Program-made: the position numbers and the translations under genes
Shown here: positions 12,475 through 43,392 of the stretch, piece after piece
How the letters are laid out: the number at the start of each line of letters is the position of its first letter
Position numbering within the stretch: the stretch's first letter is position 1
Assembly: GCA_027311065.1 (NCBI GenBank)
Contig: DAICZP010000142.1
Coordinates: forward strand, 1-45,358
Length of the DNA stretch: 45,358 nucleotides
DNA from: Thiomonas sp.
GTDB lineage: Bacteria; Pseudomonadota; Gammaproteobacteria; Burkholderiales; Burkholderiaceae_C
Direction of reading: 5' to 3'
Notes under the pieces: model-generated
Databases searched by the model: none
What the model was told of the DNA's origin: nothing
Seen by the model: the letters and a program-made list of their open reading frames with translations, nothing else

Positions 12475-12585
12475 TTCGGTGCGGGATGCTCTACAGGGCA
12501 TGGACCATCCCGGTATCATGCAAAAGGACCCACCATGACCAAAGGTCGAACCGCACCGAAGGCCGTGCGCCCAGGAGAGCCCCTC

Positions 12586-12876
12586 ATGTCTGTTCTCACC
12601 AACCAAGCATCGCGTACTGACATTCTCAACCGCCTCAAGCGGGCCGAAGGTCAGCTTCGGGGCGTGCAGCGCATGATCGACGAGGGCGAGCCGTGCCTGA
12701 AAGTCGCGCAACAGCTCTCTGCCGTGCGCAAGGCGCTGGACAGCACGTTCGTGCGCATGACGGTCTGTTACATCGAGCAGGAACTTGATTCACGTCTCGA
12801 GGGAACACCCGCCGAGAAAGGCCGCCTTGACGCGATGATGGAGGAGATGGAAACCCTGCTCGCGCGAATGACCTGA
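12586..12876 (+). CDS. CsoR/RcnR/FrmR-family (DUF156) transcriptional repressor
   Basis: 96 aa all-helical regulator of the metal/persulfide/formaldehyde-sensing family, with the typical ILNRLKRAEGQLRGVQRMI helix. Cys37 matches the first ligand of copper CsoR, but the usual His and second Cys positions (25 and 29 residues later) are Tyr62 and Glu66. A second Cys sits at 61 instead. So the copper ligand set is absent, and a two-cysteine sensor is plausible. Both ATG 12586 (AGGAGA ahead) and ATG 12535 (AAAGGA ahead) have good ribosome sites; 12586 fits the family length. It probably represses the operon from 6279-6296. Its stop is 6 nt from the convergent mnmA stop. Confidence 0.88.
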   Translation: MSVLTNQASRTDILNRLKRAEGQLRGVQRMIDEGEPCLKVAQQLSAVRKALDSTFVRMTVCYIEQELDSRLEGTPAEKGRLDAMMEEMETLLARMT

Positions 12877-38846: not shown

Positions 38847-38880
38847 CTCGGTTCGCCAGGGTCACGATGCGCATCCAGAC

Positions 38881-38956
38881 GCCGCTTTAGCTCAGCTGGT
38901 AGAGCAACCGCCTTGTAAGCGGTAGGTCATCCGTTCGATTCGGATAAGCGGCACCA
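38881..38956 (+). tRNA. tRNA-Thr (anticodon UGU), CCA encoded
   Basis: 76 nt. Acceptor GCCGCTT pairs with AAGCGGC, the anticodon arm ACCGC-CTTGTAA-GCGGT presents TGT, and the T arm is ATCCG-TTCGATT-CGGAT, ending with A and CCA at 38954-38956. Its last 22 nt (38935-38956) recur exactly at 40595-40616, so it is an integration target. Confidence 0.97.
38935..38956 (+). repeat. Left attachment site (attL-like), 3' end of tRNA-Thr
   Basis: The 22 nt from 38935, TCGATTCGGATAAG onward to CCA, are identical to 40595-40616. They span the T loop to the tRNA 3' end. This is the usual target of tyrosine recombinases, and the two copies enclose the mobile mystery pair. Confidence 0.8.
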
Positions 38957-39234
38957 AAAAATTCGTTCTTAAACAATAGCTTAGAGAGAACATTCAGAAT
39001 TTCGCGTTCGTTTTCTAGCGTGATTTTGGGGCGAATTTTGTCCCTCGGTGTCCCCCCAGTGTCCCAAAAGGTCCCTTCTGGGACACGCTGTTTGTCCCTC
39101 AGAAGTCCCAGGCATTGGTGCTAAGGGCTCAGATCGGCCCCATTGGCTGGATGGAAATTGACCACCGCTGCAGAAGCCTGGCGTGGCCATGCTAAAGGCA
39201 ATTCGCTTGATCATGGTGCAGCAAGAGGTATTTA
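38957..39234. other. Island left flank, non-coding, with GTCCC repeat cluster
   Basis: No credible gene between the tRNA and the palindromes. GTCCC occurs at 39040, 39050, 39061, 39071, 39094 and 39105, with inverted GGGAC at 39080. Spacings are mainly 10 or 11 bp, about one helical turn. The pair at 39071/39080 makes a GTCCC-ttct-GGGAC palindrome. These may be arm-type integrase sites (inference). The only open frame here (39214-38981, minus) has no recognisable family. Confidence 0.5.
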
Positions 39235-39343
39235 TTTGCTTCTTTCAAAAGAAGCAAAAATCTTAAACATGCTTTATTCATAAGAAGCTAGGCATTGACA
39301 TTTGCTTCGTCATAGGCGAGCATTGCTTTTGCAAAAAGCAGCT
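39235..39343. promoter_or_regulatory. Palindrome cluster and promoter before mobile mystery protein A
   Basis: A perfect 11-bp inverted repeat, TTTGCTTCTTT and AAAGAAGCAAA, spans 39235-39258. A related imperfect one, GCTTTAT...AAGC, is at 39271-39288. TGCTTTT/AAAAGCA is at 39324-39340. TTGACA (39295-39300) could be the -35; GAGCAT at 39318-39323 is a weak -10. Because the first gene encodes an HTH protein, these are likely its operators (inference). Confidence 0.5.
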
Positions 39344-39355
39344 TGCGAGCTAGCA

Positions 39356-39817
39356 ATGTCACCCGACCTCAACCAACTTCGACTCGAGCAACTTCAAGCC
39401 ACCTTGTCCAGTTACGCGGACTTGGTGAAGCGGCAGGCTCCATCACGGGGATGGCTGAAGCTCATTCGAGAGGCCTTGGGGCGCACGGAACGCCAGCAGG
39501 CTCAGCGAATGGGCATCACCGGGCCGACGTTGCACAAAGCTGAGCAGTCCGAAGCGGATGACCGCATCACGCTCGGGCAACTGAGAAAGCTTGCCGACGG
39601 GCTGGACTGCGAGCTGGTCTACGCCCTCGTGCCCCGGCGGCCGCTCACGGAGGTCGTCCAGGAACGCGCCCGCGCCATCGCCGTGGAAGAGGTTGGGGGC
39701 GTAGCCCACACCATGGGCCTGGAGGACCAGCGTCCGAGTGCCGAACGTCTGCGCAAACAGGTGGAGCGCAGGACGGATGAGCTGCTGCGCGGTCGCTGGT
39801 CCGACCTATGGCGATAG
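39356..39817 (+). CDS. Mobile mystery protein A (HTH regulator/antitoxin-like)
   Basis: 153 aa from ATG 39356 (MSPDLNQLRLEQLQ). A helix-turn-helix lies in the middle (ALGRTERQQAQRMGITGPTLHKAEQSEADDRITLGQLRKLAD, only part of which is the recognition helix). The length and motif match TIGR02612-type mobile mystery protein A, which is almost always paired with protein B. A TTG start at 39302 is rejected because it would read through the operator region. The stop overlaps the start of protein B by 10 nt. Confidence 0.85.
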   Translation: MSPDLNQLRLEQLQATLSSYADLVKRQAPSRGWLKLIREALGRTERQQAQRMGITGPTLHKAEQSEADDRITLGQLRKLADGLDCELVYALVPRRPLTEVVQERARAIAVEEVGGVAHTMGLEDQRPSAERLRKQVERRTDELLRGRWSDLWR

Positions 39818-40398
39818 ACCTCGACGAGCAGGATGGCCAGACCCCACTGGACCCGAACGAGAAGACCGGGCTCATTCCGCAGCACCCAGCCACCAAAGCA
39901 GATCTGAACGACTGGGAGCAAGAGAACATCCTGCACGCCCTACGCTGGCTGAAGCGGTTGCGTGCGCCGGATGTCCTCAGTGAGAAGTTCTGCCGAGAGT
40001 TGCATAAGCAGATGTTCGGTAAGACTTGGGCATGGGCTGGCACGTTTCGCAAGTCGGATAAGAACATCGGCTGCGACTGGATGCAGGTAGGAGTCAAGCT
40101 GGCCCAGCTGTTCGGGAACACACGGTGGTGGGTCGACAACGCCGTGTTTCCCCATGACGAAATCGCCGCGCGCTTTCACCATGATCTGGTCTGGATTCAT
40201 CCATTTCCGAATGGGAACGGGCGGCACTCTCGCATGATGGCTGATGCGCTTTTGCGTAGCCTTGGCCAACCAGTGTTCTCTTGGGGCGGTGGCGGCAGCC
40301 TGGTCGCTGCCAACGAGGTCCGAGACCGGTACTTGGCGGCTCTGCGAGCGGCAGACCGCGGCGACTATCGGGTGCTGCTGGCGTTCGTCCGCAGCTGA
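39808..40398 (+). CDS. Mobile mystery protein B (Fic-domain protein)
   Basis: 196 aa. The Fic motif HPFPNGNGRHSR has the catalytic His and phosphate-binding GNGR, with Asn where most AMP-transferring Fic proteins have an acidic Mg ligand. The N-terminal TKADLNDWEQENI helix is typical of this subfamily. It is expected to modify a protein, perhaps as a toxin kept in check by protein A. Target is unknown. Cotranscribed by overlap. Confidence 0.88.
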   Translation: MAIDLDEQDGQTPLDPNEKTGLIPQHPATKADLNDWEQENILHALRWLKRLRAPDVLSEKFCRELHKQMFGKTWAWAGTFRKSDKNIGCDWMQVGVKLAQLFGNTRWWVDNAVFPHDEIAARFHHDLVWIHPFPNGNGRHSRMMADALLRSLGQPVFSWGGGGSLVAANEVRDRYLAALRAADRGDYRVLLAFVRS

Positions 40399-40421
40399 CA
40401 GCTCCTCGTGGTCGTCTGTGG

Positions 40422-40594
40422 GCGCTTTAGCATCGCAAGACTCTTGTGCCCCATCATCGATGCGACCTCCATCACACCGAGCCCTTGCTCGAACAGGCGC
40501 GACGTGGCTGCGTGCGAGATCGAGATGGCGCCAGGTCAACCCAATCAACTCGCCCATGCGCATTGAGGTCTCGACCACCAGGACGAGAAAACTG
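40422..40594 (-). pseudogene. Tyrosine recombinase (integrase) remnant
   Basis: On the minus strand, one frame reads FLVLVVETSMRMGELIGLTW (40590-40530 region), the first catalytic-Arg box of phage integrases. A second frame reads ATSRLFEQGLGVMEVAS then MGHKSLAMLKR (to 40422), the HxxR/GH box end. A deletion of the stretch between plus a frameshift joins them. The N-terminal side stops at the repeat at 40595. It is not functional and was probably the island's integrase. Confidence 0.7.
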
Positions 40595-40616
40595 TCGATT
40601 CGGATAAGCGGCACCA
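40595..40616 (+). repeat. Right attachment site (attR-like)
   Basis: Exact 22-nt copy of the tRNA-Thr 3' end (38935-38956), including CCA. No other part of a tRNA is present here, so it is not a tRNA gene. It cuts directly into the integrase remnant. The interval 38957-40616 would be 1,660 bp of inserted DNA. Confidence 0.8.
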
Positions 40617-40637
40617 CCAACAACAACGCCTGGCAAA

Positions 40638-40658
40638 CAGAGGCGCTACCCGCCTCTG
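40638..40658. repeat. Perfect hairpin next to the right attachment site
   Basis: CAGAGGCG (40638-40645) and CGCCTCTG (40651-40658) with loop CTACC. There is no T-run on either strand. It lies 22 nt from attR and 44 nt from the end of the Pat-like gene, perhaps a weak terminator for that gene. The rest of 40617-40701 shows nothing else. Confidence 0.4.
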
Positions 40659-40701
40659 GATTGCTGCATCGCGACAGCGGTGTCGGGCGTGATGCACCCC
40701 C

Positions 40702-43392
40702 TCATAGCGCGTGGACCACCAGGCGGAAGTCCGGGTCCTCTGGATAGGGGTGGATGGAGAAGCCCAGGCTGCGCATCAGCTTGAGCATGCCGGGGTTGTT
40801 GGCGAGCACCATGCCGTTGATTTCGCGCAGCCCCCTCTCCCGTGCCACATCCATGATGCCTTGCATCAGGCGCGAGCCGATGCCTTTGCCATTGAATTCA
40901 TCAGCGACCACCAGCGCAAATTCGCAGCTGGTGCGGTCGGGGTTGGTCACGTAGCGGGAAACACCGATCACCCGCTCACGTTCCCCCTCGTGCCCGGCCT
41001 CGCCGGTCCCGCGTTCGCGCAGCACTGCCACGAGCGCCATCTCGCGGTCGTAATCGATGAGGGTGAAGCGCGCGAGCATGGTCGGGGGCAAGTCGGCGCG
41101 CGACGAGACGAAACGGAAATAGCGGCTTTCAGGCGACAGATCGCGCACCATGTCGCGCAGCATCTCGGCGTCGTCGGGGCGGATTGGGCGCACCATGTAC
41201 TCCCCCCCGCCGTGCAGCGGCACGATTTCGCTGTGGTTGGCCGGGTAGGGGTGAATGGCCAGATGGCCGTAACGTCCGTGGTCGCCGTGCATGCCTCCAT
41301 GCGCAGGTCCGATCACAATGCGTGCGTCCACGGCCACTGCACCGCTTTCGTCGACGATGACAGGGTTCATGTCCATTTCACGCAACTGCGGCAGCTCGCA
41401 TGCCATTTCCGACACGCGCAGCAGCAACTGTTCCAGTGCTTCCATGGCGATGGCCGGTGCGCCGCGCCAAGGGCCCAAGGTCTCCGCCACGCGTGCCCGC
41501 TGGATCAGGCTGCGACCGAGAAACTGATTCAACGGGGGTAATTCCATCGCGCGGTCAGCGAGCAATTCGATCATGGTGCCGCCAGCACCGAAGGTGATGA
41601 CCGGCCCGAACGGCGCATCGGTGACAAGGCCGACGTAGATCTCGCGTCCGCGGTGCGCGCGCGCCATCTTCTGCACCGTCACGCCGTTGATGCGTGCCGT
41701 CGGCTGCAGGCGCGTGACGTTGCGCATCATGTCCTCGAAGGCGTCGCGCACATTGGCGCCGTTCACGATGTTGAGCGCGACACCCTCCACGTCCGATTTG
41801 TGACTGATGTCGGGTGAATCGATTTTCAGCGCGACTGGAAAACCCATCTGACTGGCCAGGAGCATGGCCTCGTTGGCGTTGCGCGCCAGCGCCGTGTGCG
41901 TGACCGGAATGTGGAACGCTGCGAGCAGGGCCTTGGATTCCATTTCGGTCAGCACGTGGCGGCGCTCCGCAAGCACGCTTTCGATCACCAGCCGCGCGCA
42001 TTCCAGGTCAGGGGTGGCCAAGGCGGAAAGCGGTGGCGGTGTTTGCTGCAGCAGTTGCTGGTTCTGATAGAACGTGGCGACGTTGCCAAACGCACCCACC
42101 GCGGCTTCGGGTGTGCGGAAGCTCGGAATGTCGGCGCTGGCGAGGATGGAGCGAGCCGCGTCCATCGAGGCATCCCCCATCCAGCATGACAGCAGCGGCT
42201 TGCCGATGTTGCGCTGCGCCCCGGCAAGCACTTGCGCACAGGCCTCGGAGTCTGCGCCGACCTTGGGCGAGTGAATGACCAGCACGCCGGCAATGCCCGG
42301 GTCGTGGCTCGTTGCCTCGAGCGCGGCGCGGTAATGGTCCGGACCCGCATCCTCTGACAGGTCAACGAGGTCGGTCAGCGATGCCTGCGGTGGCAGTCGT
42401 GGCTGCAGCGCCGCCGCGACATCGGGCGCAAGTTTGCCAAGCTCGAGTCCGATTTCGCTGATCCAGTCGGCCGCCAGCACACCCGGCCCCCCACCGTTCG
42501 TGATCACCGCCAACCGCCGCCCCACCGGTCGGTAGCGCGATGCCAGACACTTCGAGGCCGAAAACAGTTCCACGAAGGATCGCACCCGCACGGCCCAGGC
42601 GCGTCGCAACGCGGCATCGAACACATCGTCGGTGCCGACGATGGTGGCGCTATGGGTTTGCGCCGCTTCATTGCCCGCCGGTTTGCGCCCCGCCTTGAGC
42701 ACGACAACCGGCTTGACGATCGCTGCCGAACGCAAGGCGCTGAGGAACCGCCGGGCGTCACTGATGCCCTCGAAATACATGACGATGCTGTGGGTCTGCG
42801 CGTCATTGGCCAGGAAATCCAGCAGGTCCGGCAGGTCCACGCCGGTTTGCGGGCCGACCCCGACCACAGTGGAGAACCCCACGCCGTTCTTCGCCGCCCA
42901 GTCCAGCATCGACGCCGTCAAGGCGCCCGATTGCGACACCAGGGCCAGTGGCCCCTGCTTCGCCAAAGGCCCGGCAGCGCTTGCGTTCAGGCCGAGCACC
43001 GGACGTTGGAAACCCAATGTGTTCGGGCCGAGCAATTGCATGTTTTCGCGCTGCGCGATCGCTTTGAGTTCAGTGGCATGGTCGGCGCCGATGCCGCTGC
43101 CGAGCACCACCGCGGCCTTGCAGTCCAGGCGTGCCGCCGATTCCAGCGCGGCGGCGATCTGCGCCGGCGGCAGCGCGATCAGGGCCAGATCGGTGGGTTC
43201 GACAGGCGCCGAAGGCATGGCGATACCGTTCATCGCTGTTTCCACGATCACCAGACGTCCCCTGAAGCCGGGCGACGCCAATGCATGGCGCAGCGCATCG
43301 GCATGGGCGGGCGCGTCGGACGCCTCGGCTGGCGGTAGAAATGCCACGATTGATTGGGGGGACAACAGCGGGGTCAGGTAGTGCTTGTCCAT
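40702..43392 (-). CDS. Pat-like fusion: NDP-forming acyl-CoA synthetase domains plus GNAT acetyltransferase
   Basis: 896 aa from ATG 43392. Order: CoA-binding domain (about 1-130), succinyl-CoA synthetase-like domain with LVSQSGALTASMLDW and His247 in AAQTHSATIVG, ATP-grasp domain (about 470-700, FPVALKIDSPDISHKSDVEGVAL region and FGAGGTMIEL), and C-terminal GNAT (about 720-896) with DEFNGKGIGSRLMQ for acetyl-CoA. This is the layout of protein lysine acetyltransferase Pat/YfiQ, which controls acetyl-CoA synthetase. The His at 247 may be the phospho-His of true ADP-forming synthetases, so activity could be dual. Single gene, own unit. Confidence 0.9.
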   Translation of the reverse strand: MDKHYLTPLLSPQSIVAFLPPAEASDAPAHADALRHALASPGFRGRLVIVETAMNGIAMPSAPVEPTDLALIALPPAQIAAALESAARLDCKAAVVLGSGIGADHATELKAIAQRENMQLLGPNTLGFQRPVLGLNASAAGPLAKQGPLALVSQSGALTASMLDWAAKNGVGFSTVVGVGPQTGVDLPDLLDFLANDAQTHSIVMYFEGISDARRFLSALRSAAIVKPVVVLKAGRKPAGNEAAQTHSATIVGTDDVFDAALRRAWAVRVRSFVELFSASKCLASRYRPVGRRLAVITNGGGPGVLAADWISEIGLELGKLAPDVAAALQPRLPPQASLTDLVDLSEDAGPDHYRAALEATSHDPGIAGVLVIHSPKVGADSEACAQVLAGAQRNIGKPLLSCWMGDASMDAARSILASADIPSFRTPEAAVGAFGNVATFYQNQQLLQQTPPPLSALATPDLECARLVIESVLAERRHVLTEMESKALLAAFHIPVTHTALARNANEAMLLASQMGFPVALKIDSPDISHKSDVEGVALNIVNGANVRDAFEDMMRNVTRLQPTARINGVTVQKMARAHRGREIYVGLVTDAPFGPVITFGAGGTMIELLADRAMELPPLNQFLGRSLIQRARVAETLGPWRGAPAIAMEALEQLLLRVSEMACELPQLREMDMNPVIVDESGAVAVDARIVIGPAHGGMHGDHGRYGHLAIHPYPANHSEIVPLHGGGEYMVRPIRPDDAEMLRDMVRDLSPESRYFRFVSSRADLPPTMLARFTLIDYDREMALVAVLRERGTGEAGHEGERERVIGVSRYVTNPDRTSCEFALVVADEFNGKGIGSRLMQGIMDVARERGLREINGMVLANNPGMLKLMRSLGFSIHPYPEDPDFRLVVHAL

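What the first reader, a model, noticed from the sequence alone, without database searches (positions are those of the whole stretch)
38935..40616. A 1.66-kb island in tRNA-Thr holding only a mobile mystery A/B (HTH + Fic) pair
The last 22 nt of tRNA-Thr recur exactly at 40595-40616 (seen). Between the copies are only the HTH/Fic pair, a repeat cluster, palindromes and a broken integrase. Mobile mystery proteins are known from mobile elements, but an island reduced to this pair, still bounded by att repeats, suggests that the pair itself is being kept, perhaps as an addiction or defence module (inference).
Basis: partly seen in the sequence, partly recalled or inferred. Interest (0 to 1): 0.7.

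Follow-up and report, generated by a model that had tools for sequence, protein, structure and literature searches.

The report
Toxin-antitoxin-like pair in tRNA island remnant
A tiny remnant of a mobile element next to a transfer-RNA gene still holds one intact gene pair (a DNA-binding protein and a Fic enzyme) that looks, from its switch region, its gene pairing and the way it decays in other bacteria, like an uncharacterised toxin-antitoxin module.

Summary
The last 22 nt of tRNA-Thr(UGU) recur exactly at 40595-40616. [quoted passage not shown] The closest congener (G008) has another small island at the same tRNA: 46-nt repeat, similar GTCCC arm, different cargo (RelB antitoxin). No empty site was found.

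The pair looks like a toxin-antitoxin module. A lies directly upstream of B in 80 of 80 named loci. Among 369 genomes, 20 of 20 with full-length B have A, while 6 of 26 with A lack full-length B. The palindromes are 18-bp boxes at 33-bp steps (two clear, two weak). The spacing recurs across phyla (29 of 80 upstream regions; 1 of 256 control windows), and box sequence tends to follow A's recognition helix. A's DNA-binding half most resembles HipB (weak scores). Its C-terminal half has a near-invariant MxLExQ motif and an invariant Trp; homology to the FicA/VbhA inhibitors was tested and not found.

I favour a Fic toxin held by a HipB-like autorepressor, kept as an addiction module in a dead element. 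Toxicity and neutralisation are untested.

The parts
38881..38956 (+). tRNA-Thr(UGU), attachment-site gene
   Evidence: ARAGORN; Rfam
38935..38956 (+). 22-nt direct repeat, left copy (attL core, inferred)
   Evidence: exact repeat; only + strand 22-mer repeated in window
38957..39204 (+). element arm; seven GTCCC/GGGAC words at 39040-39109 (integrase arm sites inferred)
   Evidence: only cluster of 5 or more in 100 nt in the window, and the only other one in 261 kb of 20 congener tRNA-Thr loci is at the same place in G008
39205..39222 (+). operator box 1 GCTTGATCATGGTGCAGC (weak, 3 of 5 arm pairs)
   Evidence: 33-bp register with box 2
39238..39255 (+). operator box 2 GCTTCTTTCAAAAGAAGC (5 of 5)
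39271..39288 (+). operator box 3 GCTTTATTCATAAGAAGC (4 of 5)
39304..39321 (+). operator box 4 GCTTCGTCATAGGCGAGC (weak, 3 of 5)
   Evidence: a further off-register palindrome at 39325-39342
39356..39817 (+). mobile mystery protein A (153 aa): HTH plus C-terminal domain with MxLExQ and terminal LW(R); putative antitoxin and autorepressor
   Evidence: TIGR02612 141 bits; HTH_3; alignments; AlphaFold mean pLDDT 87.4
39808..40398 (+). mobile mystery protein B (196 aa), Fic domain, motif HPFPNGNGRHSR; putative toxin
   Evidence: TIGR02613 244.7 bits; Fic PF02661; AlphaFold mean pLDDT 78.9; Foldseek FICD/VbhT
40399..40594 (-). integrase remnant (homology 40422-40522 and 40537-40586)
40595..40616 (+). 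22-nt direct repeat, right copy (attR core, inferred)

Best explanation
The island is the decayed remnant of a tyrosine-integrase element that used the 3' end of tRNA-Thr(UGU). Its one intact cargo is a two-gene module that works like a type II toxin-antitoxin: A binds an array of 18-bp boxes spaced 33 bp and represses the operon, and its C-terminal half holds the Fic protein B inactive. If A falls (proteolysis, loss of the locus) B modifies a cell target, probably by nucleotide transfer, so loss of the locus is penalised and the module outlives the element. Shown here: anatomy, gene pairing, phased operator array and its partial covariation with A's recognition helix, asymmetric decay. Inferred: repression, neutralisation by A's C-terminal half, toxicity, target, addiction.
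For: A is found next to B, same strand, in 80 of 80 named loci, with an A-to-B gap of -17 to +32 nt, most often -10. Of 369 class genomes, 20 of 20 with full-length B have A over its cut-off, while 6 of 26 with A lack full-length B; in situ, B was deleted, frameshifted or gone while A stayed complete in G379, G398, G457, G185 and G087. Similar palindromes at 33 bp: 29 of 80 upstream regions, 66 bp in 24, 32 bp in 8, no other distance in more than 4, shuffles at most 0.25; 256 control windows of the same loci: 1. Second set, 27 loci (3 of them repeats of the first set): 10 at 33 bp. Viral set: 6 of 22 at 33 bp and 8 at 66 bp. Half-sites tend to follow the recognition helix: TLHK with GCTTC, TVTR with ATTGC/TTTGC, [RQ][IV]S[KQ] often with GTCAA/GTAAA/GTATA. 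A's model: 10 of the first 11 Foldseek rows are named HipB or HipBA; E. coli HipB binds four TATCC-N8-GGATA operators and has a universally conserved C-terminal Trp (PMC3376134, passages). B is Fic by sequence and fold. dN/dS 0.06 and 0.14. A Mesorhizobium loti 'mobile mystery protein b' is among the 50 genes with the highest M-values in heat shock (PMC3989490, passage).
Against: No toxicity or neutralisation data. HipB matches are weak (best Foldseek E 0.06, none at 0.001 or below; NCBIfam HipB E 0.056). A's C-terminal half shows no homology to a VbhA-like antitoxin (hhalign probability 0.4%) or to any solved chain, and the strict inhibitor motif [S/T]xxxE[G/N] is met at the conserved site in only 5 of 81 A proteins. 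B has N where the canonical Fic motif has D/E (79 of 81), so AMP transfer is uncertain. 32 of 80 upstream regions show no two phased boxes. In the window only two of four boxes pass the scan threshold, and no sigma-70-like promoter was found in 38850-40750. No empty site and no second element with this arm in 249 genomes.
Confidence: 0.68

Rival explanations
1. Passive remnant: the pair is ordinary cargo that happens not to have decayed yet; its survival between the repeats says nothing about function.
For: One genome only (1 of 28 congeners); the integrase decayed by deletion, which can spare neighbours by chance; the pair sits in many contexts (108 of 135 tested flanks share no DNA of 300 nt or more with another locus).
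Against: Low dN/dS against G128, an operator register kept across phyla, and asymmetric A/B decay show the module is under selection generally, though not in this island specifically.
Confidence: 0.2
2. The pair is a phage-defence (abortive infection) module rather than an addiction module; B is released by infection.
For: B matches PADLOC candidate PDC-S04 (67.2 bits, E 3.7e-19); on the Rhodovastum plasmid the pair lies three genes from HamA; 24 IMG/VR loci carry B.
Against: PDC-S04 is a candidate with no function seen here (listing only); no systematic defence-neighbour count was made; INPHARED phages: 0 of 50,697 records with B at E 1e-10.
Confidence: 0.3
3. A/B is a regulatory pair (HTH regulator plus protein-modifying Fic enzyme that modulates it), not a toxin-antitoxin.
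For: The operator array alone is also what an autoregulator would have; E. coli FicT shows no measurable AMP transfer although it has a FicA partner (PMC5033356, passages).
Against: A survives without B in at least five genomes while full-length B was not seen without A, which fits a harmful B.
Confidence: 0.2
4. The 22-nt copy belongs to an older element and the pair arrived separately, inside the remnant.
For: DNA homology between G000 and G128 covers only win 39334-40406, the pair itself; the right repeat abuts the middle of the integrase, so the island is not a simple integration product.
Against: No second set of repeats or transposon ends was reported around the pair inside the island; the arm and repeat layout matches G008's island.
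Confidence: 0.35

Closest known systems
Mobile mystery proteins A/B (NCBIfam TIGR02612/TIGR02613)
   Same: Both proteins are over the curated cut-offs, adjacent and in the same order.
   Different: The family is named only as hypothetical equivalogs; the operator array, decay asymmetry and minimal tRNA-bounded setting reported here were not in the four papers that hold the name (passages).
HipBA toxin-antitoxin
   Same: HTH antitoxin upstream, four palindromic operators with 5-nt arms and 8-nt spacer, conserved C-terminal Trp (PMC3376134 passages); HipB tops A's fold matches.
   Different: The partner is a Fic protein, not a HipA kinase; box step 33 bp here against 28 bp in the O1O2 oligo printed in that paper (my count); A has an extra ~60-residue C-terminal domain.
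Class I FicTA (VbhTA, EcFicTA)
   Same: A small gene directly upstream of a Fic gene; a conserved Glu at the end of an antitoxin helix could play the inhibitory Glu (PMC5033356, PMC3667792 passages).
   Different: A carries an HTH; strict motif met in 5 of 81; no homology to a VbhA-like protein; B has N for D/E in the Fic motif.
tRNA-targeted integrative elements and genomic islands
   Same: 3' tRNA repeat, arm-type repeats, tyrosine integrase remnant.
   Different: Only 1.66 kb, integrase dead, right repeat abuts the middle of the integrase, no empty site seen.

Membership tests
Mobile mystery A/B (TIGR02612/TIGR02613) | Scores over curated cut-offs, A directly upstream of B | tested here: met
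   141 vs 122.6 and 244.7 vs 124.4 bits; 10-nt overlap
Type II toxin-antitoxin | Two-gene operon, antitoxin first, co-occurring | tested here: met
   80 of 80 loci; gaps -17 to +32 nt
Type II toxin-antitoxin | Antitoxin binds own operator | tested here: inconclusive
   HTH plus phased palindromes; binding not testable here
Type II toxin-antitoxin | Toxin harmful alone, antitoxin tolerated alone | tested here: inconclusive
   Genomic asymmetry fits: 20 of 20 full-length B with A; 6 of 26 A without full-length B; no growth test
Class I FicTA | Fic toxin with HxFx(D/E)GNGRxxR | tested here: not met
   HxFxNGNGRxxR, N at the D/E place in 79 of 81 (loci were fetched partly by an NGNGR pattern) and in 23 of 23 of the profile-found set A2
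Class I FicTA | Antitoxin with [S/T]xxxE[G/N] helix | tested here: not met
   Glu kept in 81 of 81 and S/T four residues before it in 63 of 81, but G/N after it in only 5 of 81 together with S/T; no VbhA homology
HipBA | HipA kinase toxin | tested here: not met
   B is a Fic protein
HipBA | HipB-like HTH on 5-N8-5 palindromic operators | tested here: inconclusive
   Foldseek best E 0.06; box length 16-18 with 5-nt arms gives the clearest 33/66-bp signal
tRNA-targeted integrative element | Direct repeat of tRNA 3' end around the element | tested here: met
   22 nt exact
tRNA-targeted integrative element | Intact integrase | tested here: not met
   Two fragments only
tRNA-targeted integrative element | Empty site in relatives | tested here: not met
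   None among 28 genomes; most congeners carry other genes between tRNA-Thr and the downstream gene

The most novel reading that the evidence does not exclude
Mobile mystery A/B is a widespread, undescribed toxin-antitoxin family in which a HipB-like repressor with its own C-terminal inhibitory domain controls a Fic enzyme with an altered metal-site residue. It is governed by an operator array whose 33-bp register is kept from Pseudomonadota to Bacteroidota and Cloacimonadota while the box sequence drifts with the repressor. It spreads as a self-sufficient minimal cassette that settles between direct repeats at attachment-type sites (tRNA-Thr here, tRNA-Arg in Methylophaga, an attC-like array in Winogradskyella).
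Probability: 0.45. Interest if true: 0.68.

Novelty: new variant of a known kind. Interest (0 to 1): 0.52.

Why it matters
A protein pair with only a placeholder name, seen in hundreds of genomes and on 231 of 72,556 plasmid records, would gain a testable mechanism: a Fic toxin under a HipB-like repressor. The constant 33-bp register with drifting box sequence is a compact natural data set for how a repressor and its operator change together. The island shows, in one place, a toxin-antitoxin-like module outliving the element that carried it.

Tried and rejected
Empty site: a joined tRNA plus right-flank query in 28 congeners gave no match across the junction. Congeners have other genes there, and G023 and G014 have tRNA-Thr close to the ubiE-like gene.

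Intact element with the same arm: pattern in 249 genomes, only G000; G008's arm does not fit the pattern's spacing, so the pattern is strict. The 399 nt left of A against 72,556 plasmid records: no match.

A as a VbhA/FicA relative: hhalign against a VbhA-like protein found with PF18495 (1 of 274 genomes over its cut-off), probability 0.4%; the C-terminal profile against solved chains gave only a chance hit, E 5.5. I keep the inhibitory-Glu idea as analogy only.

tRNA sites as the pair's general home: rejected, 9 of 80 loci have a tRNA in the held flank.

Tree-distance correlation of A and B (r 0.88) is not used as evidence, because it has no control for shared descent.

dN/dS against G054 and G102 is saturated (dS 1.5 to 2.6 or not computable) and is left out; the G128 values are used.

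Sigma-70 scan: no promoter, terminators at chance level.

Rows dropped: L194 from the operator scan (A at the contig edge); 4 of 81 loci incl. window from the repeat scan for short flanks (77 kept); one row left out of alignment A4 after a coordinate error (then 89).

Full report
The observation. tRNA-Thr(UGU) lies at 38881-38956. Its last 22 nt recur exactly at 40595-40616, and no other + strand 22-mer occurs twice in the window. The 1.64 kb between holds A and B, both over the curated cut-offs of TIGR02612 and TIGR02613, an integrase remnant on the minus strand and non-coding repeats. G+C is 0.584 against 0.637 for the window, and 0.391 in the operator stretch. The repeat is far beyond chance and the described anatomy is right.

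The element. The integrase fragments match four intact congener integrases of 349-400 aa at 76-80% DNA identity over win 40422-40522 and 40537-40586; about 270 nt between them and about the first 190-240 codons are gone. The right repeat abuts the middle of the integrase, so later deletion, not only integration, shaped the right edge. No tRNA was found within the 6.5-7 kb held around those four intact integrases, so their own sites are unknown. On the left, seven GTCCC/GGGAC words fall within 70 nt. With my threshold of five words in 100 nt this is the only such cluster in the window, and in 261 kb of 20 congener tRNA-Thr loci there is one other: in G008, the closest congener found (81% over the sspA-tRNA stretch), at the same place after the tRNA. 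G008's tRNA-Thr is followed by a different island of about 2.1 kb that ends in an exact 46-nt copy of the tRNA's 3' part. It encodes a RelB antitoxin (Pfam 77.9 bits) and a 490-aa frame with no Pfam match at 0.01. Two related elements with different cargo therefore used this tRNA. G011 has a tyrosine integrase directly after the same tRNA.

The tRNA-Thr site in the genus. Of 20 congener loci examined, 6 have toxin-antitoxin-like genes within about 2.5 kb after the tRNA (G008, G010, G016, G026, G007, G015). RelB of G008, HigB of G016 and HipA of G010 were confirmed by Pfam; the others are by sequence likeness only. An empty site was sought in 28 genomes and not found. Only 1 of 28 congeners has A over its cut-off. 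The nearest copies of the pair are in other genera of the family, G128 (A 92%, B 79% identical) and G102 (A 80%, B 83%), both beside gyrB and without a tRNA in the 18 kb held. DNA homology between G000 and G128 covers just win 39334-40406, i.e. the pair.

The pair is a unit. A is directly upstream in 80 of 80, with gaps of -17 to +32 nt, most often -10. In one class survey of 369 genomes, B over cut-off is in 22 and A in 26. The 20 with full-length B have A; 6 with A lack full-length B. On inspection G379 and G398 keep A complete with only C-terminal pieces of B, G457 and G087 (the latter from another survey) keep A with no convincing B at the site, G185 has B in three frames, G313 has two C-terminally shortened A copies and no convincing B, and G231 has an open but shortened B beside A. 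B without a whole A was seen only as fragments (G462, G493). L136 has a full B and an A that lost its first 40 residues but keeps the C-terminal half. That is the pattern expected if B is harmful without A; it is not proof. Selection: dN/dS between G000 and G128 is 0.06 for A and 0.14 for B.

The operator array. Upstream of A in the window, 18-bp palindromes of type GCTTC-N8-GAAGC lie at -151, -118, -85 and -52, exact 33-bp steps; the middle two pass the scan threshold (5 and 4 of 5 arm pairs), the outer two have 3 of 5. In 80 upstream regions (window plus 79 loci; L194 dropped) similar palindromes recur at 33 bp in 29, at 66 bp in 24, at 32 bp in 8 and at 65 bp in 4, and at any other distance in at most 2; shuffles give 0.25 at most. 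Windows elsewhere in the same loci: 1 of 256 at 33 bp. A second set of 27 loci gives 10 at 33 bp and 6 at 66 bp, next best 3; 3 of the 27 repeat loci of the first set. Viral contigs: 6 at 33 bp and 8 at 66 bp among 22 regions, several of them near-copies. Record titles of the 33-bp loci include Pseudomonadota, Bacteroidota, Planctomycetota, Lentisphaerota and Cloacimonadota names (placing these names in phyla is from recall). 48 of 80 have at least two phased boxes, so 32 do not by this scan. Box half-sites tend to go with A's recognition helix: GCTTC with TLHK, ATTGC or TTTGC with TVTR, GTCAA/GTAAA/GTATA mostly with [RQ][IV]S[KQ]; there are exceptions, and shared descent contributes.

What A and B look like. 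A's predicted model (mean pLDDT 87.4) has an HTH half and a helical C-terminal half. Ten of the first eleven Foldseek rows are named HipB or HipBA, but no E-value is below 0.06. E. [quoted passage not shown] A has a Trp at 152 of 153 that is invariant in the aligned set. A's C-terminal half has MxLExQ in 80 of 81 and Glu in 81 of 81, at the end of the long helix 97-121 and in the least confident part of the model. Class I Fic antitoxins carry an inhibitory helix [S/T]xxxE[G/N] whose Glu pairs with the last Arg of the Fic motif (PMC5033356 and PMC3667792, passages). In A, S/T stands four residues before the Glu in 63 of 81, but the strict motif is met in 5 of 81, and no homology to a VbhA-like protein was found. 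This is analogy, not membership. B (mean pLDDT 78.9) is a Fic fold (FICD, VbhT). Its motif reads HxFxNGNGRxxR in 79 of 81 and N135 is invariant in the 23 profile-found sequences, where the canonical motif has a metal-binding D/E. PMC5033356 notes that this residue is also not well conserved in one class I subgroup.

Mobility. B is on 231 of 72,556 plasmid records at E 1e-20, in 24 IMG/VR loci and in 0 of 50,697 phage records at E 1e-10. Of 135 flanks tested, 108 share no DNA of 300 nt or more with another locus. Direct repeats of 22 nt or more close around the pair occur in 4 of 77 loci (L134 61 nt, L205 32 nt, L182 25 nt, window 22 nt) against 0 of 112 control windows, maximum 18. L182 (Methylophaga) is bracketed by the promoter side and 5' half of tRNA-Arg; L205 (Winogradskyella) lies in what looks like an attC-type cassette array (recalled likeness). 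A tRNA lies in the held flank of 9 of 80 loci.

Verdict. The island is a degraded tRNA-Thr element whose sole intact cargo is a toxin-antitoxin-like module. In print, 'mobile mystery' occurs in 4 held papers; their passages list the proteins without functional tests, one of them as strongly changed in heat shock.

Noticed in passing
L074 2173-2459, L075 (reverse strand, about 12526-12813), L077 (reverse strand): In congeners G013, G022 and G024 the tRNA-Thr(UGU) gene is split in the anticodon by about 212 nt that weakly match the group I intron model (RF00028, 28.6 and 25.9 bits, below the 50-bit gathering score). No intact tRNA-Thr(UGU) copy showed among the listed matches.
   Followed up: partly
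L164, L170, L171, L176, L179, L183, L191, downstream of the pair: Seven gammaproteobacterial loci share the downstream flank; the first or nearby gene looks like prfC (release factor 3, recalled name), a known SXT-type integration site (recalled). In L176 and L179 an acetyltransferase resembling RimI (recalled) lies upstream of the pair.
   Followed up: partly
L128, L129, L130, L204, and L096: gyrB lies within 0.3-2.3 kb of the pair in 4 of 80 loci and in G128, in both orientations; Fic toxins are reported to target GyrB (abstracts in the listing). Could be an insertion hotspot.
   Followed up: partly
L205 4307-6268: In Winogradskyella the pair lies between attC-like repeats, as if it were an integron cassette.
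   Followed up: partly
L182 6905-8700: In Methylophaga the pair alone sits between copies of the promoter side and 5' half of tRNA-Arg, a parallel mini-island of about 1.75 kb.
   Followed up: partly
L134 7208-8735: The pair lies between exact 61-nt repeats, with related pilin-like frames on both sides.
   Followed up: no
L263-L266: G021 and G014 each carry two intact solo tyrosine integrases of the remnant's family, with no tRNA in the 6.5-7 kb held.
   Followed up: no
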